IMG/VR virus record: IMGVR_UViG_3300022910_000009
Span: 1-44,269 of that record
Origin: a virus
DNA length: 44,269 nucleotides
Reading direction: 5' to 3' (one strand)
The number at the start of each line of letters is the position of its first letter. The stretch's first letter is position 1. Shown here in pieces: positions 16,687-43,907 of this stretch. The notes below the pieces were generated by a model. It was not told the origin of the DNA. It did no database searches and saw only the letters and a program-made list of their open reading frames with translations. Both the position numbers and the translations under genes were made by a program.

Positions 16687-17604
16687 ATGCCCGCAGGCAT
16701 CCCCGTTTTTACCAGCACGATTGCAGATGGTCTGAAATTGACGCTCGACGAAGTGGTCGACGATAACCTGACCGACTACAAGAAAAAGCTGCTCATGCCC
16801 AAGTGGATGAAGCAGACGAACATGGAAGACAACTACGAGGACGACCTGGAAATGGCCGGCCCCGGGTTGGCAGCGGAGAAGGCGGAAGGCGCCGAGATGC
16901 AGGCCGGCGGCATCCAGGAAGGTGCGCTGACCCGCTACATCGCCCGCACGTTCGCGCTGAAGCTCATCGTCACGGAAGAGGCCGCGGAAGACTCCAAGTA
17001 CCCGGCCATCATCCAAGCCGGCGCTCGCCTCCCGCGCGCGCTGTACAAGACGGTGGACATCGACGCGACCAACATCCTCCAGCGTGCGACCAATGCGTTG
17101 TACGTCGGTGGAGACGGTCAGCCCCTGGCGAGCGCGACGCACACGCTGCCAGGCGGCGGGACGTTCTCCAATCTCATGGCGGTCCCCATGAGCCCGAGCC
17201 GCATCGCTGTCGCCACCGCGCGCACGCAGATGAGCAAGTTCCCTGGCCACGACGGCATCATCGAAGGTGTCGAGCCGGTCGCCAACCTCTGCCCGCAAGA
17301 GCAGTGGTACATTTGGGACGGCTTGAACATGTCGGAGAAGGACCCCACCCCGGGCGCCTTCAACGAAATCAACGTCGTCAAGAACATGGGCCTCAAGACG
17401 GTGCCCATCAAATACTGGACGAGCTCGACGACCAACTGGGCGCTCTTGTCGGACGCCGACAACGGCTTCAAGTGGAAGTGGCGCAAGAAGCCGAATACTC
17501 GCAGCTGGGTCGACAACGACCAACTGCTGCTCAAGTACGGCATCTTCGCGCGTTGGGCGCGCGGCTGGTCCGACCCCCGCTGCTGCTTGTTCGTGAATGC
17601 GTGA
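16687..17604 (+). CDS. Major capsid protein (HK97-type)
   Basis: 305 residues from ATG 16687. Segments typical of HK97-fold coat proteins include an N-terminal helix region (TLDEVVDDNLTDYKKKL), the spine and E-loop region (ALTRYIARTFALKLIVTEEAAED), an A-domain portion with SPSRIAVATART, and a conserved end GFKWKWRKKPNTRSW followed by LLLKYGIFARWARG. It forms the icosahedral shell. It is preceded by scaffold and head accessory genes. Confidence 0.85.
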   Translation: MPAGIPVFTSTIADGLKLTLDEVVDDNLTDYKKKLLMPKWMKQTNMEDNYEDDLEMAGPGLAAEKAEGAEMQAGGIQEGALTRYIARTFALKLIVTEEAAEDSKYPAIIQAGARLPRALYKTVDIDATNILQRATNALYVGGDGQPLASATHTLPGGGTFSNLMAVPMSPSRIAVATARTQMSKFPGHDGIIEGVEPVANLCPQEQWYIWDGLNMSEKDPTPGAFNEINVVKNMGLKTVPIKYWTSSTTNWALLSDADNGFKWKWRKKPNTRSWVDNDQLLLKYGIFARWARGWSDPRCCLFVNA

Positions 17605-17615: not shown

Positions 17616-18566
17616 ATGCCCGGACCTTCCCTACAAGACGCGCAACAGATTTACTCGAACGCTGGTCTGCGAACGCAGTACGGCGTCATCCTGCCGCCGG
17701 GCGCCCGCGTGGCCGCATTCGTGCGCTCTACTGGGCTCCAGAGCGGCGACGACGCCTTCCTCGCTACGAACCTAGTGCCGACGTTGGCGCAGGGGTTGGC
17801 ACGGGTCCGTCCTGGCCTCGGAGACTTCGTTGTTTGCCTGCCTGGGCACGTGGAGAGCGTTGTTGACGCGACGACGTTCTCTTCGGCGCTGGTCTCCGGG
17901 ACCAAGATTATCGGCGTGGGTAAAGGCTCCAACCAGCCGCTGTTCAACTTCACCACAGCCGGCGCTCGCTGGGTGGTCGGCGTCACGGATGTGCTGATCG
18001 CCGGATTGCATATCACGACATCCGGCGCTGTCACGAACGCGACAGGCATCAGTGTTACTGCGAATGACTTCGCCTTCCTGTTCAACGATGTTGAGCTGAA
18101 CACGACGCTTGGTAGCTTCAGCATCTTTATCGGCATATCAGGCACAGCATCGCGATTCGATGTCAGCGGGAACGTGGTGCGTGGGCCGTCCGTAGGCACA
18201 ACCGGAACGGCTGTTCAGCTGTCGTCGTCAGGAAGCGACGGCAGGGTTGCGGACAACGAGATGATTTGCTCATGCTCTAGCGCGAACGGAATCATCAATG
18301 TCACGGGTGCCGGAACCGGTCTGAAGATTTTGCGCAACGTGCTCAGCAACATTTCGGCCGCTTGCGTTTCGGCGATTACCCTGGCGAACGTCGCTATTAC
18401 GGGCCAGTGCGCGTACAACTCGATTGGCGTACTCAGCACCGGGGCCAGCGTATCTGGCACGACCGGGATTACCATCGGCGCAGCGGTTGTTATGTCGTTC
18501 TTCCAGAACTTCATCACGAACGACCCGCTGACGAGCGGCAAGCTGCTGCCAACCCTGGATACGTGA
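17616..18566 (+). CDS. Beta-helix virion protein A (paralogue of 19352)
   Basis: 316 residues from ATG 17616, after GAAGGAGTAGAAA. From residue about 60 on it is made of short repeating beta segments (NATGISVTANDFAFLFNDVEL, NEMICSCSSANGIINVT), the pattern of a right-handed parallel beta-helix. The segment FVVCLPGHVESVV corresponds to FIVFLPGHSETLT in the protein at 19352, so the two are related. It may be a head fibre, spike or receptor-binding protein. It lies between the capsid and the gp4-like gene. Confidence 0.7.
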   Translation: MPGPSLQDAQQIYSNAGLRTQYGVILPPGARVAAFVRSTGLQSGDDAFLATNLVPTLAQGLARVRPGLGDFVVCLPGHVESVVDATTFSSALVSGTKIIGVGKGSNQPLFNFTTAGARWVVGVTDVLIAGLHITTSGAVTNATGISVTANDFAFLFNDVELNTTLGSFSIFIGISGTASRFDVSGNVVRGPSVGTTGTAVQLSSSGSDGRVADNEMICSCSSANGIINVTGAGTGLKILRNVLSNISAACVSAITLANVAITGQCAYNSIGVLSTGASVSGTTGITIGAAVVMSFFQNFITNDPLTSGKLLPTLDT

Positions 18567-18608: not shown

Positions 18609-19355
18609 ATGCCTCTAGCACAGACAGAAGCCAGCACCGACACATATGTCCCGGCGATAGACGACATCGTTGCGATGAGCTATCGCCGCGCTGGCATGCT
18701 GAACGTTCAGCAATCGCCGACAACGACACAGGGAGCCGTGGCGCGCCAGGTGCTCAGTGTGCTGGTCACCGCGCTCGAAGCGGAGGGCATCGCTATGCGG
18801 GCGGTGCAACCCGGTTACGTGCCGCTGGTGGAGGGGCAGAACCTATACACGTTGCCCGAGACGGTCATCGACTGTGTGGGGAATGGCGCCTACATCGACC
18901 CGACCGTGAGCCAGGTGCCGTTCCAGGCGTCGAGTGAGACGCCGGTCATTAAAACAGACCGGGACACCTACCAGGGTTTGAGCTCGAAGTCGGCACAGTC
19001 GCGCCCGACGCTCTACTACTTTGCGCGCAACGCGCCGCTGTCGACGCTGTATGTCTGGCCAACGCCGAGCGCATCGGAGACTGGTGGCCAGATTCGCTTC
19101 CAGTACCACCAGCTGCGCCCGGACGTGACCGATGGCACCAAAACGATGCCGTTCGAGCGCTACTGGGACGAGTACTTTGTCTACGCGCTGGCGGGGCGGC
19201 TAGCGCTCGACAACTCAATGAGCCTGGACCGCGTCGGCTATCTCGACCAAATGGCCGCGGCGAAAAAGGCAGACGCCAAGGGCTACTCGAAGCAGAATGT
19301 CACCATGCAGGCCAGCATCGACCACATGACTGGCTGGAACAGGTATCGACGATGA
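18609..19355 (+). CDS. Head-tail adaptor / tail accessory factor, P22 gp4-like
   Basis: 248 residues from ATG 18609. The N-terminal helices (IDDIVAMSYRRAGML), the segment NLYTLPETVIDCVGNGAYI, RPTLYYFARN, LYVWPTPS and the late ERYWDEYFVYALAGRLAL follow the pattern of P22 gp4-type adaptor proteins, which bind the portal ring after DNA packaging. It is about 80 residues longer than P22 gp4 as I recall it. It sits between two beta-helix genes. Confidence 0.8.
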   Translation: MPLAQTEASTDTYVPAIDDIVAMSYRRAGMLNVQQSPTTTQGAVARQVLSVLVTALEAEGIAMRAVQPGYVPLVEGQNLYTLPETVIDCVGNGAYIDPTVSQVPFQASSETPVIKTDRDTYQGLSSKSAQSRPTLYYFARNAPLSTLYVWPTPSASETGGQIRFQYHQLRPDVTDGTKTMPFERYWDEYFVYALAGRLALDNSMSLDRVGYLDQMAAAKKADAKGYSKQNVTMQASIDHMTGWNRYRR

Positions 19356-20173
19356 CGGTGCAATTCTACCCGAACGGCATCGGTGGCACGGCCCCCGGTG
19401 ATTCTCTCGACCTGGCGCGCCCGCTGCAGACGACGGGCAATGTCTGGTACGTGAGCTCGCTCATTGGCTTCGACGCCGCTTCGCCGGCTGGGCAGAATAG
19501 AGAGAAGCCGCTCGCTACGCTGGCGCAGGCCGTGACCAACTCAGCGAGCGATGACTTCATTGTGTTCCTGCCGGGGCACAGCGAGACGCTGACGGCGGCG
19601 CAATCCATTGCGAAGCGACTGACGCTCATTGGCGAGGGCACCACATCCGGAAAGCCGTCTGTGAGCTTCCGCACCAACGCAGCGGTGTCGGCACTCTTCA
19701 CGCTGAGCGGCACGAACATCGAGCTGCGAAATATCTACTTTCCAGAGGCGCAGCAGACCAACAGCCTAGTCAAGATTCAGTGGACGGGGCAGTTTGGGCG
19801 CGTCGTCGGCTGCTACTTCGAGCTGGGAGCCAAGGACACAGCCGGCGCGCTGCAGCTCAATGGCAGCGACCAACTGCGAGTCGACGGGTCGACGTTTATC
19901 TCTACCGCGACGCTGGTGACGGCGCAGCCCGGGTACGCCATCAAGAGCGCCAGCGCGCTAGTGGACCTGGAGATATCGAACACGGTGTTTTCGGCCGGCA
20001 CAGTCGGGTTCTCCAACTTTGCCGCCGTCGACCTCACTTTCAACCCCGCCACCCGATGTCGCATCACCGGGCTGAGCCTGTTGCTCGGCGCAGACGTGGC
20101 GATGGGAGCATCCGCCACCGGGTACGTGAATGTGCAGCTTTCCACTGGAGGCTCCAGGGTAACCTGGTCGTGA
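19352..20173 (+). CDS. Beta-helix virion protein B (paralogue of 17616)
   Basis: 273 residues from ATG 19352 (ATGA overlap with the gp4-like gene). After a 40-residue N-terminus it has NVWYVSSLIGFDAASPAG, ATLAQAVTNSASDDFIVFLPGHSETLT and regular short strands typical of a parallel beta-helix. The LPGH-x-E block is shared with the 17616 protein. It may form a spike or fibre on the head or tail. No catalytic residues can be named. Confidence 0.7.
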   Translation: MTVQFYPNGIGGTAPGDSLDLARPLQTTGNVWYVSSLIGFDAASPAGQNREKPLATLAQAVTNSASDDFIVFLPGHSETLTAAQSIAKRLTLIGEGTTSGKPSVSFRTNAAVSALFTLSGTNIELRNIYFPEAQQTNSLVKIQWTGQFGRVVGCYFELGAKDTAGALQLNGSDQLRVDGSTFISTATLVTAQPGYAIKSASALVDLEISNTVFSAGTVGFSNFAAVDLTFNPATRCRITGLSLLLGADVAMGASATGYVNVQLSTGGSRVTWS

Positions 20174-20176
20174 GCC

Positions 20177-21838
20177 ATGCACCTAGTAGCTAGCCTGGTA
20201 GGTGGCGTGCGCGGGGCGGAGAACGGGTCCGTATCGTTCCTGCTGCGCGGCACAACGACGGTATCGACGTACTACTCTGACTTCGAAGCGACCCAGCAAT
20301 TCCCAGGCGCCTCGGTGCCACTGGATTCGAATGGCTCACTTGTCGCTTATGTCGCAGCACTCGTCGACGTTCTCGTGTACGACTCGCTCGGTGTGCTTGT
20401 GCGCGAGTTCGTGGCCGGTGCCGAGGATGCCGCCATTGAGGTCATCTCACCGAGCTTCACCGGCGTCGATTACACGAGCGGTGCCACGGGAACGCAGAAG
20501 CCGACCAACCTGGAGAAGGTGCTCGACTCGTGGTTCACTAGCGCCGGGGCTCCGGACTTCAAGGTGCTCTTCAATGGCGTGGCGACCTCGCTGCAGCTGG
20601 CCTTCTCCACGACGTTCTTCAACGTACGGAACTACGGAGCGGTAGGCAATGGCGTTGCTGATGACGGGGCGGCAATCAGCAGCGCACAGGCGGCTGCCAC
20701 GGCGGCTGGCGGCGGCACGGTGTTCTTCCCGCCAGGCACCTATCGCATCACGACAGCGCTGCCACTAGCCGCCAACGTGGCTTGGCTAGGTAGCGGAGGC
20801 CAGTCGTCTAAGCTTGCCGTCGACAGCGCTGTCGGGGCTGGAGCGGTGACGCTTCCGGGTAACCCGGCTGGTAGCATGTCGTCAATCAGCCAGCTCTGGA
20901 TAAAGGCAATCAATGGGGCAAATCCCGGTACGCTGGTCACGTACAGCGCGGCGAGTTCCGGCGAGTACCATTTCACCGACTGCCTCCTTGGGAACGACCT
21001 GATATGCAACAGTTCGTTGTATGCCGGCGCCGGTGGCACGGCCGCGCTGAAGTCCGTTTTCACCCGTTGCTACCTCAAGCTCACTGCTGGGCTTTCGCAA
21101 CTCATCATTAGCGATGGTGCGGCGAGGCTGGAGGTGCGCGACTGTGACCTCATCAACGCCAATGCGGTCGGCGCCACGATGGTGGATTGCGCAGACAACG
21201 GGTTATTCGAAGGCAATCGCTTCGATTGGTCGGCGGCCGCGGCGGGGCCCGGTATTCGCTACATCCAGATAGCGCCGACAGCAGCGACGGTAGCGATCTT
21301 TGGCAACGTATTCGTGGCTAATTTTGTGATGGCATGCACAGCCATCTTCAACACGCTCGCCGCGCCATTTCGCGACTGCGTGGAATACGGGAACACTTTC
21401 GGCAACATGGCGTCTTCCGCGCCTGGCTGCGCTGCCTACGGCTACACGACAGACGGTTACGCGGCGCTCGGCGCGGCCATGCAGTACAACGGGCACCAGA
21501 CTCGCCTAGCACGCACGGAGCTGCTTCCTGGCGTGGTCGCGGCGGCCGTTACGGTGGACCCGAAGCAGTACGGCTCGTCCACTGTTTCGCGCACCGGCGG
21601 CGTGAATCTGACGGTAAATGCAAGCAAAGGCTCCCTTGGTGACAGGTGGACGCTGCACGTCATCAACACGAGCGGCGGAGCCATCACCGTCATCGGCGGG
21701 ACGAATATCATATTTGACCCGGGCGTGGCGCCATTGCCAGTGAACAACAACGGGTTCGCCGAGGTGACGCTGCAGTGGCTACCTACCGCGGGTTCGGTAG
21801 GCAACTGGTACCAGATAGCGAAAGCTGTGCTGTCGTAA
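20177..21838 (+). CDS. Tailspike with anchor domain and pectate-lyase-like beta-helix
   Basis: 553 residues from ATG 20177. Residues 1-145 match a common phage anchor domain (LVASLVGGVRGAENG, RGTTTVSTYYSDFE, LVDVLVYDSLGVLVREFVAG). Residues from about 148 start the pectate-lyase-like region with FFNVRNYGAVGNGVADDGA and GGGTVFFPPGTYRI, followed by beta-helix coils to about 430. The last 100 residues form a beta-rich trimer tip. It probably binds and cleaves a surface glycan. Confidence 0.85.
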   Translation: MHLVASLVGGVRGAENGSVSFLLRGTTTVSTYYSDFEATQQFPGASVPLDSNGSLVAYVAALVDVLVYDSLGVLVREFVAGAEDAAIEVISPSFTGVDYTSGATGTQKPTNLEKVLDSWFTSAGAPDFKVLFNGVATSLQLAFSTTFFNVRNYGAVGNGVADDGAAISSAQAAATAAGGGTVFFPPGTYRITTALPLAANVAWLGSGGQSSKLAVDSAVGAGAVTLPGNPAGSMSSISQLWIKAINGANPGTLVTYSAASSGEYHFTDCLLGNDLICNSSLYAGAGGTAALKSVFTRCYLKLTAGLSQLIISDGAARLEVRDCDLINANAVGATMVDCADNGLFEGNRFDWSAAAAGPGIRYIQIAPTAATVAIFGNVFVANFVMACTAIFNTLAAPFRDCVEYGNTFGNMASSAPGCAAYGYTTDGYAALGAAMQYNGHQTRLARTELLPGVVAAAVTVDPKQYGSSTVSRTGGVNLTVNASKGSLGDRWTLHVINTSGGAITVIGGTNIIFDPGVAPLPVNNNGFAEVTLQWLPTAGSVGNWYQIAKAVLS

Positions 21839-23328
21839 TGCCCAGCGCTCCGGTGCCGTTTATCAACCAGCAGGCCACCGGCCAAGAGTCGCTGTCCGGT
21901 GCGCCTGGCGTGGCGGTGAACGTGATGGTTGACCAGTCTGGCTGCATCCGACGGCGCCCTGGGCTCCAGGCTGCACCCGGGTTTACGTCCGACGTTGTGG
22001 ACGCTACCGGGCTGACTGGACTCTACTCGACTGTAGGCGGAGCGCTGTATGCAGTGGGGGGCACACCGTTCTTTCGGCAGCTCTACCAGATAGGGCCTGC
22101 GGGCGCGACGCTGCTCGGCGCTCCGGCGTCGGACGGGACACTGGCCGGGAGCGGGCGCCCGATATTCGCAGAGACGCAACTGCTGCTCGCCATTGCCGGC
22201 GGGGACGCGATGGAGAAAATTGTGCTGAGCACGGGCGTAGCTGCGCGGCTCGGTGGTACGCCGCCGCGAGCATCGCATGTCGCGGCAAACTCGTCACGCC
22301 TGCTAGGCAACATCGCTACCATCAGCTCGACCGTGGACCTCGATAAGTCGGTTGTGCGCTTCAGCGCCATCGCCAACGGGAACACGACCTACGCCAACCT
22401 CGAGGTGTGGACGGAAGGGGTGGTGTTCGGTGGCGCTGGGCACTTCTCTGCCGAGGCTAACCCTGACCCTGTGGTGGCGGTCTACGAGAATACGAACGAG
22501 GTGTTCTGCTTCGGCACGAAGTCACTCCAGGTGTTCGCTCCGGATGGTTTCGTCAGCGATACTGGTATCCCAGCTGGGTGGTCGCCATCGGTGACGCGAG
22601 AACTTGGGTGCTCTGCGCCGTACAGCATCATCAAGGTCAACCAGCAGTTCGCGTGGCTCGACGACTTGCGGCGCATTACGCTCAGCGATGCGCGAAGCGA
22701 GTCCGTCATCAGCGACCCCATCAAACGTGACCTGGACGACATCGGCACCGTATCGGATTGCTTCGGCTACCGAGTCACCACTGGCCCGTTGGATGCCATG
22801 GTTTGGAGCTTTCCGACAGACGGGCGCACGTTCGCCTTCCAACGCGGTGGCGGCTGGTCGGAGTGGCTCGGGTGGAGCGGGGGCAACTGGAGCCCATTTA
22901 CCATCACCTCGTCGAGTATCTCCCCAACGAGCCACGATGTCCTGGCGGGCACGGCCGACGGGCGAGTCGGGCGCTTCAGCTTGGACGCCCAGGACGACCT
23001 CGGGGCGCCCATCAATCTTCGCGTGGATACGGGCTACATCAATCGCGGGACTGACGAGCAGAAGCACTGTCGGCGGCTGTATGTCGCGCTGCGGCGCGGC
23101 GCGGGCGCCGCTTCTGGCACCAAAGCCCTCATCAGCTGGCGAGACCAGCCTGGTCCGTTCGAGCCGCCTCTCGAAGTGGAGCTCGGCCCGCTTGGCGACA
23201 CGGAAATTGTGGTACAGTTGACCTCGCTAGGTGTGTACCGGCGCCGGCAGTGGCGCTTTGAATATTCTGGCGCGGAAGACCTGGCACTGGTCGGCGTGAC
23301 CGAAGAGTTTGACATCCTGAAGGACTGA
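21838..23328 (+). CDS. Tail needle-hub / DNA stabilisation protein, P22 gp10-like
   Basis: 496 residues from ATG 21838, sharing one base with the upstream TAA. The N-terminal VPFINQQATGQESLSG and IRRRPGLQAAPGF, regular beta-blade segments (NEVFCFGTKSLQVFAPDGF, WSEWLGWSGGNW) and the beta-rich end resemble P22 gp10-family hub proteins. These complete the tail tube and seal the packaged DNA. The position after tailspike and gp4-like genes agrees. Confidence 0.8.
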   Translation: MPSAPVPFINQQATGQESLSGAPGVAVNVMVDQSGCIRRRPGLQAAPGFTSDVVDATGLTGLYSTVGGALYAVGGTPFFRQLYQIGPAGATLLGAPASDGTLAGSGRPIFAETQLLLAIAGGDAMEKIVLSTGVAARLGGTPPRASHVAANSSRLLGNIATISSTVDLDKSVVRFSAIANGNTTYANLEVWTEGVVFGGAGHFSAEANPDPVVAVYENTNEVFCFGTKSLQVFAPDGFVSDTGIPAGWSPSVTRELGCSAPYSIIKVNQQFAWLDDLRRITLSDARSESVISDPIKRDLDDIGTVSDCFGYRVTTGPLDAMVWSFPTDGRTFAFQRGGGWSEWLGWSGGNWSPFTITSSSISPTSHDVLAGTADGRVGRFSLDAQDDLGAPINLRVDTGYINRGTDEQKHCRRLYVALRRGAGAASGTKALISWRDQPGPFEPPLEVELGPLGDTEIVVQLTSLGVYRRRQWRFEYSGAEDLALVGVTEEFDILKD

Positions 23329-23336: not shown

Positions 23337-23798
23337 ATGAGCAGACTGAGTGGAACGGCGACGGGCGCGGCGAGCGGAGCGGCTACTGGCGCAGCACTCG
23401 GGCCATGGGGCGCTGCGGCGGGCGGCGTCGTGGGCGGCCTGCTCGGCTATTTCGGTAGCGGAGACGATGGTGCGCAGAAGGATGCTCAGGAAGCAAAGCT
23501 CGCGGCCGGGCGCGAGGCGGCGGCGGACTACATGGCGTATCGCGACACGGTGAACCAGGCGCACATGAAGGCGATGGCCAACCAGCAGAGCTTCTTCGAC
23601 ACCAACAGCAGCATGCTGAATTCGATGAACGGCGGCCAGGGTGCGCCGGATGTTGCGGGTGGCGTGTATGAGTCTCCGATCCAGGCCGAGGGCATGAAGA
23701 AGGTGGCGATCGCTAGCACGGCCCCCAATTACCAAGGGCAGCCAATGCCGACGCAGAACGCGCCGCAACAGCTGAGCTATGTCCCGAGGGGACAGTAA
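23337..23798 (+). CDS. Small ejection protein with glycine zipper (gp7-like)
   Basis: 153 residues from ATG 23337. Residues 5-40 are a Gly/Ala zipper (TGAASGAATGAALGPWGAAAGG) that could insert in membranes. They are followed by a helical Ala/Gln-rich part. Its place at the head of the internal-protein cluster suggests that it is a short ejection protein that primes the channel, as P22 gp7 does. The sequence alone does not prove homology. Confidence 0.65.
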   Translation: MSRLSGTATGAASGAATGAALGPWGAAAGGVVGGLLGYFGSGDDGAQKDAQEAKLAAGREAAADYMAYRDTVNQAHMKAMANQQSFFDTNSSMLNSMNGGQGAPDVAGGVYESPIQAEGMKKVAIASTAPNYQGQPMPTQNAPQQLSYVPRGQ

Positions 23799-24928
23799 TG
23801 CCAGCCAACGACATCGCCGGCCAAGTCAGCGGCGGCACCACAGCCACCGGCCCACTGGACTTCCGCCCGCCGCAACAGCCGCCTGCGGCACAGGGTGGCC
23901 AGCAGTACGACGCGGACGGGTATCCGCTACCGAACGCCGACCAAATCAAGGCCGCGCAGTACTCCTACAGCTTCGATGCGAACGGGCAGAAGACGGCCAC
24001 TGGAACGGTCGCATACGACCCGAGCATGCAGCCGCCGTCTCCGGATAGCGACAACCCGTTCCAGCCGGGTAGTAGCCAGGCCATGGCGTGGGTCAACCAC
24101 AACGCCAAGAAGAAGCAGAACCAGGCGAACAAGGAAGCCTGGCAGAAGCAGCACGAATCGCAGCGGCAGCAACAACCGGCAGCGGCTGCGCCAGCGCAAA
24201 GCTCCGCTGCCGCAACGCCATTTCAGTCGAGCGGCGTGGACCTGACCCAGCAGGGTAAGGGGGAATCGTACATCGACTCGATTCTGCAGCATTACGGCGA
24301 GGCAGGTGTCCCGCAGGTTGGCAACGAGAGCAAGAACACGCTCGAGTCGTTCCGCAGCTCACAGCCGGCCGACATGTCACCGTACTACGACTACGCAAGC
24401 AAGCTGGCGTCGTCCAAAATCGACAATGCGATGGCCGCGCGCGGGTCGTACGGTTCGAGTAATGCTACCGGCCAGATTGGCGCGGCAGAAGTGGCGCTCC
24501 GAGCACAGGAGGCTCGGGACAATGCCCAGTACGGGCTATCCCGATTCGCCCAGGAAGGCTCGCTCGCGGGCGCGGCTGACCAGCAGGGTAACGTCGCCAA
24601 CGGTATTCAGTACCAGTGGACGAAGGGTCTCGGAGACATGGCGATGAACGACCAACAGGCCGGACAGGACCGCAACCAAAACCTCTGGAACAACAACTTC
24701 CAGCTCGCCGCGGCGAAGGCTGGCGTGTACGGCGCCGGTGCCAGCGGCGCAATCAACGACGTGAACGCAGCTACGGACGCCGCCGAGAACGCCAAGCAGG
24801 GCAACGCGACTGACGCGCTGAGCATCGCGAACTCCAACGCGAACTCCTCGAACGCGGTGACAGCGGGGCTACTGAATTCGGCGAACACCGCAGCAAACAA
24901 CTACATCAAGTACAAGGCGAGCAACTGA
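23798..24928 (+). CDS. Internal virion (ejection) protein
   Basis: 376 residues from ATG 23798 (TAATG overlap). The first 150 residues are Gln/Pro/Ala/Ser-rich and disordered. The rest is helical, with repeated Ala, Asn and Gln (GQIGAAEVALRAQEARDNAQYGL, NSNANSSNAV). This composition is typical of podophage proteins packaged inside the head and ejected with DNA. Confidence 0.65.
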   Translation: MPANDIAGQVSGGTTATGPLDFRPPQQPPAAQGGQQYDADGYPLPNADQIKAAQYSYSFDANGQKTATGTVAYDPSMQPPSPDSDNPFQPGSSQAMAWVNHNAKKKQNQANKEAWQKQHESQRQQQPAAAAPAQSSAAATPFQSSGVDLTQQGKGESYIDSILQHYGEAGVPQVGNESKNTLESFRSSQPADMSPYYDYASKLASSKIDNAMAARGSYGSSNATGQIGAAEVALRAQEARDNAQYGLSRFAQEGSLAGAADQQGNVANGIQYQWTKGLGDMAMNDQQAGQDRNQNLWNNNFQLAAAKAGVYGAGASGAINDVNAATDAAENAKQGNATDALSIANSNANSSNAVTAGLLNSANTAANNYIKYKASN

Positions 24929-25746
24929 TGGCCGTACGTGGAATCGAACCGAGCTATTTCGCCGGCATGCCGACCGTTCAGCGCGACCCGCGCGCGGGCC
25001 AACCGGGCGAGGCCTACGCGGCAATGCCCGGGCAAGCGCTGTCTGAGGTCAATGCACTGGGTGAGCGGCGTCGCGAGAGTGACCAGAGCAACGCATTCCG
25101 CGCGCGCGAGCAGTCGCATCGTGAGCAGCAGGATGCAACGTCATCGGCTCGGGAGGACCGGCGGCTGGGCATGTACCAGCAGGGTGAGGACCGTCGTCAG
25201 TCCCAGCAGGAATTCGAGAACGACCGGCTCAAGTCGGCGGACACCAGGAAGCTTGTGCAGGCGATGCAAGCGGCGCTCGACGACGGGGAGGTTGGGATTG
25301 CCGAGGCCATCGCCGCCGAGCTCCGTGGGCGGGGCATCCAGGCCAAGCCGCTAGGGGCACAAGCCCCTGCCCAGCCAGGAGCGCCTCGTGGCCCGCAACC
25401 GGGCCCAGCTGGGGCGCCTGGCGCCGCGCGTCCCATGTCCAAGGCAGACGCCGCCACGAGCGCGCAGCTCGACGAGGCGGAGCAGCGCATCATCCCGAAG
25501 CTGCGGGGCGGTCCTACCGCTACGCCGTCCCCGCGTGCGGCAGCGCCGCGACCAAGCAATCAGGACGTGGCGCTATCCAACCAGCTCGACCAAATCGACA
25601 AACAGTATTCGGCAGGCCTTGGCGTGCAGCCCGGCAACCCGAAGCCGCTGCTACCGGGCGGCCGGCGGAGCCCGCTGCGCTCGCGCGCCATCGAGGCGGA
25701 CCAGTTGCTAAGTGCGGATGACCCGCTGAACCGAATCGTCCAATGA
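24928..25746 (+). CDS. Internal virion protein with coiled coil
   Basis: 272 residues from ATG 24928 (TGATG overlap). Residues about 35-110 are a charged helical stretch rich in Arg, Glu, Gln and Ser. Residues 135-175 are Pro/Gly/Ala-rich, and a second helical and Pro-rich part follows. No domain is recognised. The gene order places it in the ejection-protein cluster. Confidence 0.6.
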   Translation: MAVRGIEPSYFAGMPTVQRDPRAGQPGEAYAAMPGQALSEVNALGERRRESDQSNAFRAREQSHREQQDATSSAREDRRLGMYQQGEDRRQSQQEFENDRLKSADTRKLVQAMQAALDDGEVGIAEAIAAELRGRGIQAKPLGAQAPAQPGAPRGPQPGPAGAPGAARPMSKADAATSAQLDEAEQRIIPKLRGGPTATPSPRAAAPRPSNQDVALSNQLDQIDKQYSAGLGVQPGNPKPLLPGGRRSPLRSRAIEADQLLSADDPLNRIVQ

Positions 25747-26858
25747 CCGACCAAGGCCCCCGCTCGCTCCTACCAGGCGTCGCGATGCGCCCGCGTGCCC
25801 CGTATGGCATGACGCCAGGGGTGCGCGCGGTGCTGCCCGGCATCAACGACATGTCGGCTACGGCGTGGAACAAGCCGCCAGAGCCGGACAAGATTGACCT
25901 GGACGTACCGATGGCGAACCCGCCGGAGCCCGCGCAGCCGCAAGCCGATGAGCCGCAGGGCTACGAACTCACTATGCCGGATGGGAGCACGGTCCACTTG
26001 CGCTCGCAGGCCCACAAGCAGCGTGACGCGGAACAGGTGAAGGCGCTCGGCGACGCCCTGCTAAACCACGCGGTGTCCGATGAGGAGAAGGCCGTGGCGC
26101 AGCGAGCCATCGAGTGGGGCATGGCCCAGGTCGGCCAAGCGGACATCGGCTCGATTCGCAAGGACATGACCCACTACTGGGACGTTGGCTCCGGCGGCAT
26201 CCTGAAGACCGACCTGCAGGCCATGAAGTCCAAGGCAAACCGCGGCGGCAAGGGCGGAGTTCCGAACGCCGTTGGCGAAAATGGCATGCCGCTCCCGACC
26301 ACGAAGTTCGGCCACGCGCTCGACAAGGACCTCAACGACCGCGTGAGCCAAGTCATCCAGCAAGAGCGCATGGGCGGGAAGTACATGGCTCTGTCGGATG
26401 CCGAGAATACGCTCGGGCAAATGGAGGACGCGCTCAACTCCGGCAACTCGATGAGCGAGCGCGTGGCTGTACAGCAGCAGCTGCTAGCGCTCACCGGCAA
26501 GGCATCGCGCGAGTCGGAGCAAGCCGCTATCACTGGCGCCGCCGGCAAGTGGGAGGAGCTCAGGAACAAGTTGAGCCTTTGGACCAGTGCCGACCCAAAT
26601 CTGTCGCGTGCGTATGTATCCAAGTTCAAAGGCATGATTGCCACGCAACGCTCGTCGATTGCGAAGCTCAAGCAGCAGCTCGCGGTACAGGCGGCTACGC
26701 GCATGCGTGAGCAAGCCAGCGGTTACCCGCCGGACGTGTCGTCGCATGCGGCTGACATTGTTTACGGCTCGCTCTCGGGCAACTTTCGCGGAGGTAGCTA
26801 CGAACCGCCAGCGCCGGCAGTGACCAGCGCCCATGACCCGTACTCGGGGCTCGACTGA
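25743..26858 (+). CDS. Internal virion protein
   Basis: 371 residues from ATG 25743 (ATGA overlap). The first 90 residues are Pro-rich, then a long helical protein follows (EEKAVAQRAIEWGMAQVGQ, DAENTLGQMEDALNSGNSM). No catalytic motif is seen. It is joined by overlaps to its neighbours. It is probably an ejection protein that forms part of the trans-envelope channel. Confidence 0.6.
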   Translation: MTDQGPRSLLPGVAMRPRAPYGMTPGVRAVLPGINDMSATAWNKPPEPDKIDLDVPMANPPEPAQPQADEPQGYELTMPDGSTVHLRSQAHKQRDAEQVKALGDALLNHAVSDEEKAVAQRAIEWGMAQVGQADIGSIRKDMTHYWDVGSGGILKTDLQAMKSKANRGGKGGVPNAVGENGMPLPTTKFGHALDKDLNDRVSQVIQQERMGGKYMALSDAENTLGQMEDALNSGNSMSERVAVQQQLLALTGKASRESEQAAITGAAGKWEELRNKLSLWTSADPNLSRAYVSKFKGMIATQRSSIAKLKQQLAVQAATRMREQASGYPPDVSSHAADIVYGSLSGNFRGGSYEPPAPAVTSAHDPYSGLD

Positions 26859-29800
26859 TGTACACGGCGGAGCAATACGCGCGCGCCAAGGCGGCCCTCA
26901 ACGACCCCGACCTAGAGAAGAAGGTGGGGGCGGAGCGCATGGGCAAGTGGGCGCGAAACGTGGCCGAGTACGAGACGGCCCAAGGCGCGCCAGGAGGCCC
27001 CGGGTTGTCCGAGCAGGATGTGGCTCGACTGGAGACCCCGCTAGCTATTGGTGGCGCGTTGCCTAACGAGAGCATCGCGCCGGACTACCAGTACCATCCC
27101 CCGGAGGATTTCGATGAGAAGCTGCCGAACGCGACCAAGCGAAAGCGGTACTCGGCGCCACCGGAGTACGTCACCAAGCAGCCCGGGAAGGCTCTGGCGC
27201 AGCTAGCGAAGAATCGCCTTACGGACCCGCTGAACGGCTCGAATGGCGCGATGTACTTCGAGCCTTCCGAGAAGCAGTTCGCGGCGGACATGGGGGAGTA
27301 CCTCAAAGCCAAGGGCGTAGAGCCGGGCAGCGAGGACTATCGCCTGGCGTTCGCCGACTACAAGGACCGCAAATGGGAGCAGGCCTACAAGCAAGCCGAG
27401 GCGACGGATAGCCCGCTGCTGCGAGTGGCGTACGTGCCAGAGAACGCGAACGGCTGGACGAAGCTGCAAGCGTACCTGGCGGACAAGACGGACGCGGCGA
27501 GCGCATTCGCGCAAGGATTCGCCAGTGGCGGAACGCTGGGCATGACGCGCGCGCTGCACTCGGACGCCGATCGCGAACAGCTAGCGCGACACCCTATCGC
27601 TGAGACGCTTGGAGAGTTCGGTGGCGCCGTGACACCCGGCGGCTTAGCGAGCAAGTTGACCGGAACCGTGGGCCGTGGCGCGGCCAGGCTCGGGCCAGTC
27701 GGGGCCGCGGCGGTGGCGGGGGGTGTAGCCGCCCCGCTCGACGTTGCAGCCCATGCTGGCGCGGAGGAGCTGTCCAATAGGCTGCATGGCCGTCCGGTAG
27801 ACCAGGACGCGAAGGGCCAGTTTGCTAGCAAGCTGCTCGGGAGCGCTCTGCTCGGGACGGGTATGGGTGTCGTCGGTGAGTACCTGGCATCCGGAGCGCA
27901 GGGTTACCGTGAGCACGTGCGCTCGCCGCTGAGCAAGTTCGGAACGGAGCTAACGAACGCCGAGTCGACCGGCACCGCCACGGACGCACTCAGCGGCTTG
28001 AAGCCATCGAGCGACGTGCAGAAGTACCTCGATAAGGCCCGCGGACCGGTGCCTGGTGAAGACCGACCATTGCCCTCCGGGAGCGCAGTGGAGTACGCGG
28101 CAGGAGACGTGCGCGGGCCCGTAGTGGCGCAGCAGAGTCTGGAGCACACCGCGGCGCTCCAGCGAATGGAGCGCGAGAGCGGGCGCATGTACCAGGGTGA
28201 CGCGGGTCTGCGCCAGCCAAAGCCGATGGGCGAGCTCGTGCGGACCTTGCGAGAACACATCCTCGAGCGTAGTCAGCCGGAGGCGGCTAGCGAGTTCCTG
28301 CCGGCGCCAGGACAATCGCTCGGAGCCAGGAACAACGCCCAGCTCATCGACTTCGCACGAAAGCTCGTGCGCCCGCGCTTGGCCCTCGATGTGGACGCCG
28401 CGAAGGAGGCGGCGCGCACAGGTGGCCAAGTGGTGAGCCTGGAGGACGCCGAGCGGATGGGCTTTGCGGTGAAGGGGCTCGAGAACGAGGCGAATCCCGC
28501 TACCGGCGTACCGCACAACGCGCCGACACTGAGCGGTGACTCGTTCCCCTGGTTCCCGCAGGCGAACCCGGTAGAGGTGCTGCCGAAGTACACGAAGGAG
28601 CAACTTGCGGCGCACGCTGATGAACTCGTTGGCTACCCAGCGGCGACGCCCGAGCAGGCAGCCGCGCTGAACAAGTGGTCTTTCGGTCACGACGAGGCCA
28701 TCCGCGGTGTGCAACGGGGCGACCCGGACGCCGCCATCATCCAGAAGCGGCTCGAAGCCTACGGCGGCCCGGTCGACAAACTGGGCGTTCCACACGAGCA
28801 GCACCTGGCGGAAGCCAAGGAAGCGGCGCGGCACATCGGCGAGTACCTGGCGGCCACGCCTCCGTCGTCCAAGCTCCCATTCGTTTACCGTGGGCTCGTG
28901 CTATCGCGCGAGGAAGCCAAGAAATTCCTGCAGCGCGGAGAATTCGACCTCGGCAACTCTGCCAGCTCTGTGTCCGCCGACCCCGCAGTGGCACGCTCTT
29001 TCGTCGCTCGCAACGTGAAGCCTGGAGACGTGGGCATCACCCTGAAGCTCGAGCACAACGGGGCCCGCGACATCAGCCCCTACGCGGCCGACCGAGTGAA
29101 GATTGAGAAAGAGCTGCTGATGCCCGGTGGCAGCAAGTTCTCGGCGGTGAACCGCTTTGAGGACGCCTCCAATCCTGGCCACTACATCGTAGTGGGCAAA
29201 CAGGCCCCGCCGGAGGGTGACCTAGGCGCCACGCGCCCGGAGATTGAACCGCCGGCAGTGGAGGTCCCGCCCGGCCATTCACCAAAGACGTTCCGCGTCA
29301 TTCTGGAGCCACGTGCCTACGACGCCATGAAAATGGAGGCGCAAATCAAAGCCATCGACCAGGCCGGTAAGGCAGGTACAGAGGCCAAGGTGGACCCGGT
29401 GTGGCCCGAGCTCATGCGCGCGGCGCGCGTGGACCGCGAGCAGTTCGGCAAGGCGTGGTCGGGGCTCAAGAACATCCACCATGAAGAGCTCACGGCGCTC
29501 GAGCAGCGCGCGGCGCACGCCGGCATCACCGAGAGCAAGCCGTATGACCAGATGAGCGGCAACGCCCAGAAGACGGCGAACGCCGCGCTCACGAACTACG
29601 GTGTGGCGCCACAAGAGACCAACAAGGCACTTGGTGAGCTGGCGGACAACGCTGGCGTTCGGCAGAACCTGGAGACGCTCCGCGGCACGCGCGCCTACTC
29701 CGCACTCAAGGAAAAAGCCACGCCAGCGCTCAATGAGAGCATCACGACCGGCGGCGCCTTTACGCGCTTGGGCGGCTTGTTGCCAGGCGCCAGGCTCCGT

Positions 29801-30067
29801 GGCGACGCTGTGGCGCGCTCGGTGGCTCGAGGCCCTGAGGGAGATGCGCTGTTCGTCAGGAAATTCAACACCGGCCTGATGAACGAGCCGCTCGGGCGCG
29901 AGGTGGCGCCGTCTGGCCCGTTCGGCAACCTGCTGTCGATGGGGCGCGGAGCGCTGGGCATCAAGACGGGTTCGGTGTACGATTCATACTCCGAGCGAAC
30001 TGGCCCTGGCAGTTCCCTGTCACCGGAAGAGAAAGCAAAGCTGCAACAGCTATTGGAGTCGCAATGA
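26858..30067 (+). CDS. Giant ejection protein carrying an ADP-ribosyltransferase-like domain
   Basis: 1069 residues from ATG 26858. Residues 1-210 are a charged helical domain, and 215-345 contain Gly/Ala-rich hydrophobic segments (LGPVGAAAVAGGVAAP, LLGTGMGVVGEYLASG) that could enter membranes. Residues about 600-785 follow the R-S-E class of ADP-ribosyltransferases: YRG with R678, a Ser-rich SASSVSADPAVARSF block (701-715) and the EKE motif at 750-752 (IEKELLMPGGSKF). The C-terminal 280 residues are helical. Phage T4 Alt is a known precedent for an ejected ADP-ribosyltransferase. The host target is unknown. Confidence 0.7.
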   Translation: MYTAEQYARAKAALNDPDLEKKVGAERMGKWARNVAEYETAQGAPGGPGLSEQDVARLETPLAIGGALPNESIAPDYQYHPPEDFDEKLPNATKRKRYSAPPEYVTKQPGKALAQLAKNRLTDPLNGSNGAMYFEPSEKQFAADMGEYLKAKGVEPGSEDYRLAFADYKDRKWEQAYKQAEATDSPLLRVAYVPENANGWTKLQAYLADKTDAASAFAQGFASGGTLGMTRALHSDADREQLARHPIAETLGEFGGAVTPGGLASKLTGTVGRGAARLGPVGAAAVAGGVAAPLDVAAHAGAEELSNRLHGRPVDQDAKGQFASKLLGSALLGTGMGVVGEYLASGAQGYREHVRSPLSKFGTELTNAESTGTATDALSGLKPSSDVQKYLDKARGPVPGEDRPLPSGSAVEYAAGDVRGPVVAQQSLEHTAALQRMERESGRMYQGDAGLRQPKPMGELVRTLREHILERSQPEAASEFLPAPGQSLGARNNAQLIDFARKLVRPRLALDVDAAKEAARTGGQVVSLEDAERMGFAVKGLENEANPATGVPHNAPTLSGDSFPWFPQANPVEVLPKYTKEQLAAHADELVGYPAATPEQAAALNKWSFGHDEAIRGVQRGDPDAAIIQKRLEAYGGPVDKLGVPHEQHLAEAKEAARHIGEYLAATPPSSKLPFVYRGLVLSREEAKKFLQRGEFDLGNSASSVSADPAVARSFVARNVKPGDVGITLKLEHNGARDISPYAADRVKIEKELLMPGGSKFSAVNRFEDASNPGHYIVVGKQAPPEGDLGATRPEIEPPAVEVPPGHSPKTFRVILEPRAYDAMKMEAQIKAIDQAGKAGTEAKVDPVWPELMRAARVDREQFGKAWSGLKNIHHEELTALEQRAAHAGITESKPYDQMSGNAQKTANAALTNYGVAPQETNKALGELADNAGVRQNLETLRGTRAYSALKEKATPALNESITTGGAFTRLGGLLPGARLRGDAVARSVARGPEGDALFVRKFNTGLMNEPLGREVAPSGPFGNLLSMGRGALGIKTGSVYDSYSERTGPGSSLSPEEKAKLQQLLESQ

Positions 30068-30475: not shown

Positions 30476-30781
30476 ATGTCCGGTATCACGCCGAATCATT
30501 GGCCCAATGACCCACCGAGCGTTACCGACATGCAAGGCGGGACCACCACTTTGGTGTTGGGATTCAGCCCTGTAATCGTGGCCAACATTACCGCTGGATG
30601 TAGCATCGTGTGCACCTTGAGAACACCCGCTGGAGTTACGCTGACGACCGGCTATGCGGCGCCGGCTGGCTCGCGCGTGAACGGGACACCGGGCTCGTTC
30701 CGCGTCATGGCCATGCTGGCCGCTGGCACCGTGAACATTTTGGACGGTTCCACCGTCGACTGGGTCATCGCCGGTCCGTGA
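30476..30781 (+). CDS. Small beta-rich protein, possible appendage subunit
   Basis: 101 residues from ATG 30476, with GAGGAG-CGAGGAGC upstream. It is hydrophobic and beta-rich (TTTLVLGFSPVIVANITAG, VNILDGSTVDWVIAG). The composition suggests a small immunoglobulin-like or jelly-roll fold. Its stop overlaps the GTG of the SGNH protein, suggesting that the two are made together. Confidence 0.55.
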   Translation: MSGITPNHWPNDPPSVTDMQGGTTTLVLGFSPVIVANITAGCSIVCTLRTPAGVTLTTGYAAPAGSRVNGTPGSFRVMAMLAAGTVNILDGSTVDWVIAGP

Positions 30782-32154
30782 GAACCATAGGTCGCAGGTT
30801 GCCAGAGGGTCGAGGTCCGGATCGTGTGGCCTTGTGCTCGTACTGTGGAGTGCAGTGGTTCCGCTCGCAGTTGACCCGCGACGCCTCACAGAACCTTGCG
30901 TGTCCTGACTGTGCGCCGGGACTCGACATCGTGAGCCTGACAGAGGGCAACGCACGGATGATGCGCAGCCAGGCGCCGCGCTCGGTTGGGCCTTCCGATG
31001 GCAACTTCGACCAGTTCATCTGCCCGCCGTCGCCGGGGTTCGTAAACCCAAACGGGCCGCCAAAGATAGTCCCATCCTCCCTGGGATACGTCGCGACGAG
31101 ATTGGCAGTCCCGGATTCTTCCCAGGCAAACACCCAACCATGGATGGTTAGGACCGGTCACATAGCAACCGATAGCATGTCACTGATACGGCTAGCATGG
31201 GCCAATTGGTATGCACACGAGCAAATACCTGGAGCCAATATGCTGACGCTTACGGCATCCGTGGAATATCCGGCTGGCGTGTTCACGCGGGTCAAGTTCC
31301 GTGGCGGGGAGACGGGTTCTGCCAGCGCAGGGTCTACTCTGTGGTCCGATGATTTGCCGGTTAATATCCCACTTGGAGCGCGGTTTTGGACGCGAGCGTT
31401 TTTCCGAAACTCGAGCAACCTACTCGCTCTTGGTCCAAGCCTATGCAACGCCCTGTTCGGAGATGCGATTGTCCAGAATGGAACCGACCAGACCATGGGC
31501 GGAACGATAGTATCGAACGCGAACTTCCTGATGCCGCCGTGCGCCATTGTTGGCGCGACTTCAAAGCGCAGCGTTGTCATTATCGGGGACAGTCGCACGG
31601 CGGGGGTCGGTGACAATTTCCAGGCCGCCAATGGCGGGTGGGGTGAGATGAGGAGCGGCTTAGCTCAGTATGCAGGCGTCAACTGCGGCATCAGCGGTAC
31701 TAGCGCCGCACAGTACCTTGCGTCAGCTGGGCCACTACGCGCGGAGCTAATCGGTTACTGCACGGATGTTGTCGATGCTTACGGCGTGAACGACATATTC
31801 GTTTTCGGCCGGTCAAACGCGCAGCTGAAAGCAGACCAGGCCGCTATCCGCGCGCTCTACCCGACGAAGCGATTCTTTGTGACTACGCTCGACCCAGAGA
31901 CCACCAGTACTGACAACTGGGCGACGCTTGTAAATCAGACGCCGAGAGCGCAAGAGGCCGTGCGGGTGGCGTACAACACCGATGTCAGAGCGAATGCTCT
32001 GGGGTCCACTGGTTTCTTCGAATGCGCCGCTGTGTCGGAGTCTTCGCTCAACTCGGGCCTATTCAAGGTCGATGGGACCGCTTTCAAGTATACCGCCGAC
32101 GGTACGCACCAGAGCTCGTTCTGCTACCGGCTCTACAGCTTCGCGCTGCCGTAA
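30778..32154 (+). CDS. SGNH-type esterase with N-terminal zinc ribbon
   Basis: 458 residues from GTG 30778 (GTGA overlap). Residues 20-45 hold CSYC and CPDC, a zinc ribbon. Residues about 70-260 are beta-rich and may be a carbohydrate-binding part. The SGNH catalytic set follows: block I IIGDSRTAG with S272, block II NCGISGTS, block III YGVNDI with N338, and block V DGTH with D441 and H444. Such enzymes deacylate surface polysaccharides, so a tail enzyme that removes O-acetyl groups from host glycan is likely. Confidence 0.75.
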   Translation: MRTIGRRLPEGRGPDRVALCSYCGVQWFRSQLTRDASQNLACPDCAPGLDIVSLTEGNARMMRSQAPRSVGPSDGNFDQFICPPSPGFVNPNGPPKIVPSSLGYVATRLAVPDSSQANTQPWMVRTGHIATDSMSLIRLAWANWYAHEQIPGANMLTLTASVEYPAGVFTRVKFRGGETGSASAGSTLWSDDLPVNIPLGARFWTRAFFRNSSNLLALGPSLCNALFGDAIVQNGTDQTMGGTIVSNANFLMPPCAIVGATSKRSVVIIGDSRTAGVGDNFQAANGGWGEMRSGLAQYAGVNCGISGTSAAQYLASAGPLRAELIGYCTDVVDAYGVNDIFVFGRSNAQLKADQAAIRALYPTKRFFVTTLDPETTSTDNWATLVNQTPRAQEAVRVAYNTDVRANALGSTGFFECAAVSESSLNSGLFKVDGTAFKYTADGTHQSSFCYRLYSFALP

Positions 32155-39710: not shown

Positions 39711-39943
39711 AGCTCCCGCCCCAGCCAGCCGGATCCGCCGTTTCTATCCTCGAGCTCGTCCCAGGTGAGCTCCTCGACAGTGTCTCCGTCGTCAAAGCTC
39801 CACTCGGTCACTTCGTCGCCTGGCATCAGCTTAGGCTCGGGCACATCATCCTCGCAGTGCCAGTCGAGCCACTCATCCTTTGCATGCTCTGGGCTGCAGG
39901 CAACAAACCAGTCGAACGTGTTGTCAAATCGATAGACAGGCAT
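39707..39943 (-). CDS. Small acidic phage protein
   Basis: 78 residues from ATG 39943, with GAGGAA upstream; a GTG one codon earlier is possible. It begins MPVYRFDNTFDWFVA, a recurrent phage hypothetical pattern, and is very acidic with many Trp. The acidity could suggest DNA mimicry, but this is not established. It is coupled to the helicase gene by TGATG. Confidence 0.6.
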   Translation of the reverse strand: MPVYRFDNTFDWFVACSPEHAKDEWLDWHCEDDVPEPKLMPGDEVTEWSFDDGDTVEELTWDELEDRNGGSGWLGREL

Positions 39944-41640: not shown

Positions 41641-41966
41641 AGCAGCTTCTCCCCAGGCAGCACAAAGGCTAGTGCCGCTATGTGCTCCGGCGGCTCTCGC
41701 CCCCAGTGCTCCGAGTACTCCTCGCCACAGTTCAGGCGCTCGTCGGGCCACATTTCGCCGGGTGCCAGCGTTCGCAGGTGCTCGTGAATCTTCTGGCATC
41801 GCTCACAGCGCTTCAGGCTTTCCACGCCTTCGAAGATTATTGCAATCACGTGGTAGGTGTGGCCCGGAGAGATTGTCTCTTTGCACGCGGAGCACTTGTG
41901 CGGCTTGATTGCCCGCCGCCTGGTCTCCGAATACACGGCGTACGCCTCGTCGTACTCGTGGCTCAC
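41637..41966 (-). CDS. Zn-binding phage protein
   Basis: 109 residues from ATG 41966 (ATGA-type overlap with the upstream gene). It has PHKCSACKETISPGHTYHV and CERC about 20 residues later, a treble-clef or ribbon-like Zn site common in phage proteins next to recombination genes. Function unknown. Confidence 0.65.
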   Translation of the reverse strand: MSHEYDEAYAVYSETRRRAIKPHKCSACKETISPGHTYHVIAIIFEGVESLKRCERCQKIHEHLRTLAPGEMWPDERLNCGEEYSEHWGREPPEHIAALAFVLPGEKLL

Positions 41967-42976: not shown

Positions 42977-43215
42977 GGCTTCACCGGCAGCTGTGTGGCA
43001 CACCAATCAGCCACCTTTAGGATTGCTTCCGTAACCGTCGAAGCAGTGGCAGTGAAAGTCTCGACTCCGCCGGCGTTCTCTTCGTTGCGGTCACTATCGT
43101 CGCAGTGGCACAGCGAGGCGCGCCACCCACCACCCGTTGCGATGTAACGACCGATGCGGATGTCGTACTCCTCGTGGATAAGCAACCACTGCTCGATCGG
43201 CGTCGGCAGGCTCAC
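42973..43215 (-). CDS. Hypothetical protein between Erf and the nuclease
   Basis: 80 residues from GTG 43215 (GTGA overlap). The N-terminal part (IEQWLLIHEEYDIRIGRYIATGG) and a CHCDDSD stretch are followed by a helix (TEAILKVADWC). No family is recognised. It is coupled on both sides within the recombination operon. Confidence 0.6.
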   Translation of the reverse strand: MSLPTPIEQWLLIHEEYDIRIGRYIATGGGWRASLCHCDDSDRNEENAGGVETFTATASTVTEAILKVADWCATQLPVKP

Positions 43216-43907
43216 GACGCCACCACCGGGTTAGCCTGCGCCTCAAGCATCTTGACCAGCGCGTCGGCTTTCGCCTGATTCAGCGAACCCAGCATGCCGG
43301 TCCCGTGCTGGACGCTAAAGTCTTCGAGCTCGGAGCCCTTGAAGCCGATACCCTTGGCCAGTTCGCGAATACGAGCTTTGGTTGCCTCGGCAGGGGCGTC
43401 GGGCTTCGCTGGCTCGGCCGGCTTCACATCGGGTGGCGTGGCGCGAGGGCGTGGCTCGGCTTTCTTGTCGGAGCCGCTCGCTGTCAGACCGTCGTCGTCC
43501 TCGCCATCGTTCACCCCGAGCATGCTCTTTAGCTGGTAGCGCTTGACGTATGTCAGCGCGGAGCCAAGGGCTTGGACGTTGGCCCAGTTCGGCAGCAGCA
43601 CATCGACCTCGACGCGGGTCGCTCCGAGGGCAAGGATGGTAGTCACCTTGTCGCCGTCGAATGGCTGCAACAGAGCCAGGCCGTACTTGTTCAGGGCGGG
43701 CCGCACGCTCGCCAGCACCTCGGCGAGGGTGGCGTACTTGAACATGCGGTTATCGAACTTAACCTGTGCATCACGGTCCATTTCGACGAATTCAGCCTGG
43801 GCTTTGGCGAGCGCCGTGAACAGCTCGCCCACATCGCCCACATAGCGAATGGTCTCGCGAGGAGGGGCGGGAATGGTATCGGGGTGCGAATTCTCTTGGT
43901 CGTTCAT
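43212..43907 (-). CDS. erf: Erf-family single-strand annealing protein
   Basis: 231 residues from ATG 43907, with AAAAGGAACC upstream. The ERF domain spans about 20-140: FTALAKAQAEF, FKYATLAEVLASVRPALNKYG, and the signature QALGSALTYVKRYQLKSMLGV followed by an acidic loop. A Pro/Ala-rich linker leads to a helical C-terminal domain. It anneals complementary strands during recombination and circularisation. It is the first gene of the long leftward operon, with an operator-like palindrome in its promoter. Confidence 0.92.
   Translation of the reverse strand: MNDQENSHPDTIPAPPRETIRYVGDVGELFTALAKAQAEFVEMDRDAQVKFDNRMFKYATLAEVLASVRPALNKYGLALLQPFDGDKVTTILALGATRVEVDVLLPNWANVQALGSALTYVKRYQLKSMLGVNDGEDDDGLTASGSDKKAEPRPRATPPDVKPAEPAKPDAPAEATKARIRELAKGIGFKGSELEDFSVQHGTGMLGSLNQAKADALVKMLEAQANPVVAS

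What the first reader, a model, noticed from the sequence alone, without database searches (positions are those of the whole stretch)
26858..30067. Virion ejection protein with a built-in ADP-ribosyltransferase-like domain
Inside a 1069-residue protein of the ejection cluster, residues about 600-785 show all three marks of R-S-E ADP-ribosyltransferases in the right order: YRG (R678), the Ser-rich SASSVS strand (701-706) and EKE (750-752), followed by LLMPGGSKF. Hydrophobic Gly/Ala segments lie upstream. This would deliver a host-modifying enzyme with the DNA, as T4 Alt does, but in a podovirus-type channel protein.
Basis: partly seen in the sequence, partly recalled or inferred. Interest (0 to 1): 0.8.

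Follow-up and report, generated by a model that had tools for sequence, protein, structure and literature searches.

The report
Phage ejection protein carrying ADP-ribosyltransferase cargo
A short-tailed phage carries, spliced into the largest of the proteins it is predicted to shoot into the cell with its DNA, an enzyme module that should modify host proteins using NAD; relatives show the module is gained and lost repeatedly in that one protein, so this looks like a swappable payload slot.

Summary
The 1069-residue ORF (26858-30067, +) is the last and largest gene of an ejection-type cluster downstream of a P22-gp10-type neck gene. Residues 591-785 are an ADP-ribosyltransferase (ART) of the R-S-E type. 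No single-sequence search finds this, but an AlphaFold model of the domain matches ARTs in the PDB (Vis, HopU1, Tre1; best E 2e-7), and a nine-member phage profile finds Vis at 1.6e-13. R678, S704/S706 and E752 are the conserved columns. A strict form of the motif occurs in 7 of 20,000 shuffles.

New here: the ART is a cargo module. The closest relative (L003, 70-74% identical on both sides) lacks residues 560-783. Similar empty sites recur in other pairs. Among 50 related viruses, 9 carry an ART (7 firm, 2 provisional), always in this gene, scattered over the neck-gene tree as if at random (8 changes; random 8.5).

Most likely mechanism (delivery inferred): the protein leaves the capsid with the DNA, forms the inner-membrane/cytoplasmic part of the channel, and its ART domain mono-ADP-ribosylates host proteins, probably on arginine, as T4 Alt does. 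New variant of a known kind; the recurrent slot in a podovirus channel protein is the surprising part.

The parts
26858..30067 (+). gp16-position ejection protein (1069 aa) with inserted ART domain
   Evidence: ORF; last and largest gene of the cluster after the Hc3 neck gene in relatives; one orthologue (L011) matches phrog_342 internal virion protein, E 1.2e-5
26858..28534 (+). conserved N-terminal and middle part, residues 1-559, mostly helical
   Evidence: 70% identical to L003 residues 1-563; helical in the model
27683..27763 (+). hydrophobic Gly/Ala segment, residues about 276-302
   Evidence: Kyte-Doolittle mean above 1.2 in 19-residue windows
27821..27892 (+). hydrophobic Gly/Ala segment, residues about 322-345
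28535..29206 (+). inserted segment, residues 560-783, replaced by about 30 residues in the closest relative
   Evidence: L003 aligns to 1-559 and 784-1067 with no ART between
28628..29212 (+). R-S-E ADP-ribosyltransferase domain, residues 591-785
   Evidence: AlphaFold model pLDDT 70, pTM 0.62; Foldseek PDB top hits Vis E 2e-7, HopU1, Tre1; nine-member profile to Vis E 1.6e-13
28886..28894 (+). YRG, residues 677-679 (R678)
   Evidence: alignment A8
28967..28975 (+). SVS, residues 704-706 (the STS position)
   Evidence: S704 and S706 invariant in nine domains
29105..29113 (+). EKE, residues 750-752 (ExE)
   Evidence: E752 invariant in nine domains, E750 in five
29207..30058 (+). conserved C-terminal helical domain, residues 784-1067
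   Evidence: 74% identical to L003; pLDDT mostly 84-92 over about 851-950
21838..23328 (+). neck gene Hc3, podophage gp10/stabilisation type
   Evidence: phrog_578 E 6e-21; profile to podophage stabilisation protein 9vyg 2.4e-5 and needle-head protein 7eeq 3.7e-4, P22 gp10 only 0.24
23337..23798 (+). small Gly-zipper protein, 153 aa, cluster member
   Evidence: synteny, sequence
23798..24928 (+). cluster member, 376 aa
   Evidence: synteny in relatives
24928..25746 (+). cluster member, 272 aa
   Evidence: synteny
25743..26858 (+). cluster member, 371 aa, gp15/gp20 position
   Evidence: synteny

Best explanation
The protein is a gp16-type ejection (pilot) protein of a short-tailed phage with an R-S-E ADP-ribosyltransferase inserted between its conserved N-terminal/middle part and its conserved C-terminal domain. 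It is packaged in the head, leaves with the DNA, and builds the inner-membrane/cytoplasmic end of the injection channel. The ART domain, which lies C-terminal to the hydrophobic segments and so is expected in the cytoplasm, then transfers ADP-ribose from NAD to host proteins, probably on arginine (ExE motif), within the first moments of infection. The domain is optional cargo: related phages carry it, lack it, or carry a distant version in the same gene. Shown by computation: ART homology and fold, catalytic residues, insertion, patchy distribution, gene order. Inferred: packaging, ejection, topology, activity, targets.
For: Fold: the domain model matches Vis 4xzk/4xzj (E 2e-7, probability 1.00), HopU1, Tre1, VahC, SpvB, and all 12 matches with E <= 0.001 are ARTs; the full-length model likewise; the viral library returns Alt, ModB and head-morphogenesis ARTs. 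Sequence: a nine-member profile finds Vis 1.6e-13, Tre1 2.3e-7, ExoT 8.6e-7; a profile made only from the distant phage members finds the window domain at 3.6e-4; one member reaches Pfam ART at 8.3e-5. Insert: L003 lacks this segment; similar in L027/L072, L051/L060, L095/L084, L010/L015. Distribution: 9 of 50 viruses, 8 changes, 7 forced by supported branches. Setting: podophage neck profile; ART found only in the last, large gene of the cluster. Background: ejection genes in an operon with a gp16-like large gene whose C-terminal part is cytoplasmic (PMC8954989); P22 ejection proteins leave the virion with DNA (PMC8402733).
Against: No match of the window protein itself to P22 or T7 gp16 or to any PHROG or PDB chain. 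The role as ejection protein rests on position, size, helical character and one weak orthologue hit. Domain model confidence is moderate (pLDDT 70; TM about 0.4 to Vis with high rmsd, so the lobes are not well packed); the full-length model is weak (pLDDT 63). Catalytic-site geometry was not measured. Two of the nine ART calls (L078 with His for Arg, L095) are provisional. No host is known.
Confidence: 0.78

Rival explanations
1. The ART fold is real but its job is inside the phage: self-modification or modification of other virion proteins during assembly or ejection, not host modification.
For: It is embedded in a structural protein; nothing here shows a host target.
Against: Close relatives have the same cluster without it (L003), so assembly does not seem to need it. 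Gain/loss scatter is typical of conflict genes. Known virion ARTs such as T4 Alt modify host proteins (PMC9503650).
Confidence: 0.1
2. The domain is a degenerate or non-catalytic ART used as a binding module.
For: Divergent: invisible to Pfam as a single sequence; the first Glu of ExE is lost in several distant relatives, and L078 has His for Arg.
Against: In the window R, SxS and ExE are all intact, as in L010, L014 and L044; between window and L010 the domain is 51% identical against 35-40% elsewhere in the protein, so it is under constraint or recently exchanged.
Confidence: 0.07
3. It is an NADase or nucleic-acid ADP-ribosylating enzyme rather than a protein-arginine transferase.
For: [quoted passage not shown] the substrate cannot be read from sequence.
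Against: ExE with a first Glu is the usual mark of arginine-specific members (own knowledge); the nearest solved structure is Vis, named an NAD-arginine ADP-ribosyltransferase.
Confidence: 0.2
4. The protein is not an ejection protein but another virion or tail component, or a toxin encoded in the late region.
For: No direct sequence match to characterised ejection proteins.
Against: Gene order neck - small/medium proteins - largest protein recurs in relatives; hydrophobic segments; podophage neck type; weak phrog_342 internal virion hit of an orthologue.
Confidence: 0.1

Closest known systems
T4 Alt (head-packaged ADP-ribosyltransferase)
   Same: R-S-E ART predicted to enter the cell with the DNA and act at once; Alt proteins are among the viral fold matches
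   Different: Alt is a separate internal head protein of a contractile-tailed phage; here the ART is a domain inserted in a podovirus channel protein
Vis toxin of Vibrio splendidus (PDB 4xzj/4xzk)
   Same: closest solved structure by fold and by profile; YRG, STS, ExE order
   Different: a bacterial ART without virion parts; 16-17% identity
Polyvalent proteins of phages and plasmids (PMC5512222)
   Same: ART in a large virion protein likely injected with DNA
   Different: those carry H-Y-D type ARTs and several unlike domains; [quoted passage not shown] no second enzyme was found here
MuF-ART fusions (PMC9503650)
   Same: ART of the Alt/VIP2 family fused to a head protein that may be injected
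   Different: the carrier is a MuF head protein; here it is an internal insert in a gp16-type protein
P22 gp16 / T7 gp16 ejection proteins (PMC8954989)
   Same: position as last and largest ejection gene, helical, hydrophobic segments, C-terminal part expected in cytoplasm
   Different: no detectable sequence match; T7 gp16 carries an N-terminal transglycosylase, which P22 gp16 lacks; an ART is not described in either

Membership tests
ADP-ribosyltransferase superfamily, R-S-E clade | ART fold | tested here: met
   Foldseek PDB hits are ARTs, best E 2e-7, probability 1.00; moderate model confidence
ADP-ribosyltransferase superfamily, R-S-E clade | Arg in first strand, SxS in second, Glu in a later strand (ExE) | tested here: met
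   R678, S704/S706, E750/E752; strands, conservation
ADP-ribosyltransferase superfamily, R-S-E clade | sequence homology to known members | tested here: met
   profile to Vis 1.6e-13, Tre1 2.3e-7, ExoT 8.6e-7; the window sequence alone gives no Pfam ART match
ADP-ribosyltransferase superfamily, R-S-E clade | NAD-dependent transferase activity | not testable with these tools
   needs purified protein
T4 Alt family | packaged in the head and injected with the DNA | not testable with these tools
   inferred from gene context only
T4 Alt family | separate internal head protein | tested here: not met
   the ART is residues 591-785 of a 1069-aa protein with conserved flanks
Polyvalent proteins (Iyer et al. 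2017) | several unlike domains with disparate activities in one polypeptide | tested here: not met
   no other domain by Pfam or PHROGs; the fold search of the full model returns ARTs
Polyvalent proteins (Iyer et al. 2017) | ART with H-Y-D active site | tested here: not met
   R-S-E residues
gp16-type podovirus ejection protein | last, largest gene of the ejection cluster in a podovirus | tested here: met
gp16-type podovirus ejection protein | sequence or fold homology to P22/T7 gp16 | tested here: inconclusive
   none for the window protein; orthologue L011 to phrog_342 E 1.2e-5
gp16-type podovirus ejection protein | present in virion and ejected | not testable with these tools
   needs proteomics

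The most novel reading that the evidence does not exclude
Podovirus gp16-type ejection proteins have a general cargo slot, before (and in one virus after) the conserved C-terminal domain, into which ART effectors are repeatedly inserted and lost; the channel protein thereby places a host-modifying enzyme at the cytoplasmic mouth of the injection channel before any phage gene is expressed, and the slot could accept other payloads.
Probability: 0.5. Interest if true: 0.75.

Novelty: new variant of a known kind. Interest (0 to 1): 0.62.

Why it matters
A published survey counted ARTs in only 3% of siphoviruses and podoviruses and tied virion-delivered ARTs mainly to contractile-tailed phages (PMC9503650). 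Here an uncultured podovirus lineage carries them in about one in six members examined, inside a protein thought to form the DNA channel. If delivery is confirmed, sister pairs with and without the module make it directly testable what an injected ART buys a phage, and they map an insertion point that an ejection protein tolerates.

Tried and rejected
Single-sequence searches of the protein against Pfam, PHROGs, PDB, phage records and viral contigs gave nothing; a designed TIM-barrel hit at E 0.046 and Obscurin/calmodulin hits were judged chance. Searches with the ART domain and with the neck gene in bacterial genomes found no relatives, so no host can be named. A profile of the C-terminal domain could not be used for a collection scan. 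I considered that L003 and others simply lost alignment in a variable region; rejected because both flanks align at 70-74% and the 224 missing residues are replaced by about 30. I looked for other enzymes in long gp16-like relatives without an ART (L063, L064, L065, L089, L104, L113): Pfam found none of note, so the claim of a general payload slot rests on ARTs alone. GC and third-position GC of the insert do not differ from the rest of the gene (0.653/0.80 against 0.66/0.795), so there is no sign of recent foreign origin.

Full report
What is there. The window is a virus record of 44,269 bases. On the + strand it has terminase (9580-11154), a portal-like protein (11148-13409), a capsid gene (16687-17604), a P22-type neck gene Hc3 (21775 or 21838 to 23328) and then a run of tightly packed genes starting at 23337, 23798, 24928, 25743 and 26858, followed by 30064. 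The Hc3 profile matches solved podophage stabilisation and needle-head proteins (E 2.4e-5 and 3.7e-4; P22 gp10 itself only 0.24). The 1069-residue protein is the last and largest of this run. In the literature, podovirus ejection proteins are encoded in a small operon with the large gp16-like gene last, whose C-terminal part is thought to reach the cytoplasm (PMC8954989), and P22 ejection proteins leave the virion with the DNA (PMC8402733).

Is the ART real. The window protein alone matches nothing in Pfam, PHROGs or (significantly) PDB. I found relatives through the neck gene and compared the ejection genes. Three domains at first (window, L010, L014) gave an alignment with the whole R-S-E set conserved. 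AlphaFold on that alignment gave a moderate model (pLDDT 70, pTM 0.62). Foldseek against the PDB returned 12 matches with E <= 0.001, all ADP-ribosyltransferases or the XopAI effector of the same fold group: Vis, HopU1, Tre1, VahC, XopAI, ExoT, SpvB. Against viral models it returned T4-type Alt and ModB proteins and head-morphogenesis proteins. Further loci gave nine domains; their profile finds Vis by sequence at 1.6e-13, Tre1 at 2.3e-7 and ExoT at 8.6e-7. Because that profile contains clearer ARTs than the window's, I checked the link the other way: a profile of the distant members only finds the window domain at 3.6e-4, L044 at 7.6e-6 and L014 at 1.9e-5, and no ORF outside this gene among 5,699 ORFs scored below E = 1. 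In the full-length model the rest of the protein is mostly helical and the ART is the main beta-rich globule; the full model also matches ARTs first.

It is an insert. The closest relative with the gene, L003, aligns at 70% over residues 1-559 and 74% over 784-1067, with about 30 residues in place of 560-783. Similar gaps are seen for L027 against L072, L051 against L060, L095 against L084, and L010 against L015. In L055 an ART 54% identical to that of L027 lies after, not before, a stretch matching the C-terminal domain, which points to movement of the module. Window and L010 are 51% identical in the ART but 35% and 40% in the flanks. On a tree of the neck protein from 50 viruses, the 9 ART carriers need 8 changes, about as many as random labels (8.5), and 7 are forced by well supported branches. 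Two of the nine (L078, L095) are provisional: profiles that leave them out score them only at about E 0.1, and L078 has His for the catalytic Arg. In every case the ART lies in the large last gene of the cluster.

How it most likely works. Shown by computation: fold, catalytic residues, insertion, gene order. Inferred: the protein is packaged, ejected, and spans the inner membrane with its hydrophobic Gly/Ala segments (276-302, 322-345), which would leave residues beyond them, including the ART, in the cytoplasm. ExE suggests transfer to arginine. Relatives without the domain suggest it is not needed to build the channel. The timing, before phage gene expression, is what T4 Alt uses to modify RNA polymerase (PMC9503650), but no target is known here.

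Comparison. It works like T4 Alt but is built differently. It does not meet the definition of polyvalent proteins, which combine several unlike domains and carry H-Y-D ARTs; [quoted passage not shown] It resembles MuF-ART fusions in principle (PMC9503650) but uses a different carrier. Searches of the paper library for an ART in a podovirus ejection or internal virion protein found no precedent; the library lacks most subscription journals, so this absence is weak evidence. I rate the finding a new variant of a known kind, with the recurrent slot the most interesting part.

Noticed in passing
L055:15707-18655: ART module at residues 733-890, downstream of a stretch matching the C-terminal domain, although 54% identical to the L027 ART that lies upstream of it: the module seems to change place within the gene.
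   Followed up: partly
window 30610-32154; L009:4661-4960, L010:6124-6426, L015:5812-6765: Residues about 57-155 of the ORF that also encodes an SGNH-type esterase (a CxxC-containing stretch) match a separate small ORF between the capsid gene and the 18609 gene in several relatives: a possible domain shuffle or gene remnant.
   Followed up: no
window 17616-18566 and 19352-20173: Two genes that look like distant paralogues (the L002 and L010 copies of the first also match the second).
   Followed up: no
L043 (Planktothrix phage PaV-LD) 4461-6236: A hypothetical protein near virion genes weakly matches the ART segment of L027 (tblastn E 0.01); possibly another virion-linked ART.
   Followed up: no
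window 43212-43907 (-), 39943-41799 (-): ERF-type recombinase and a helicase in the leftward region; no integrase was seen among the ORFs tested, so lifestyle is open.
   Followed up: no
L078:16705-19290: ART-like domain with His in place of the catalytic Arg (YHG) but SLS and ERE kept, possibly a different activity.
   Followed up: no
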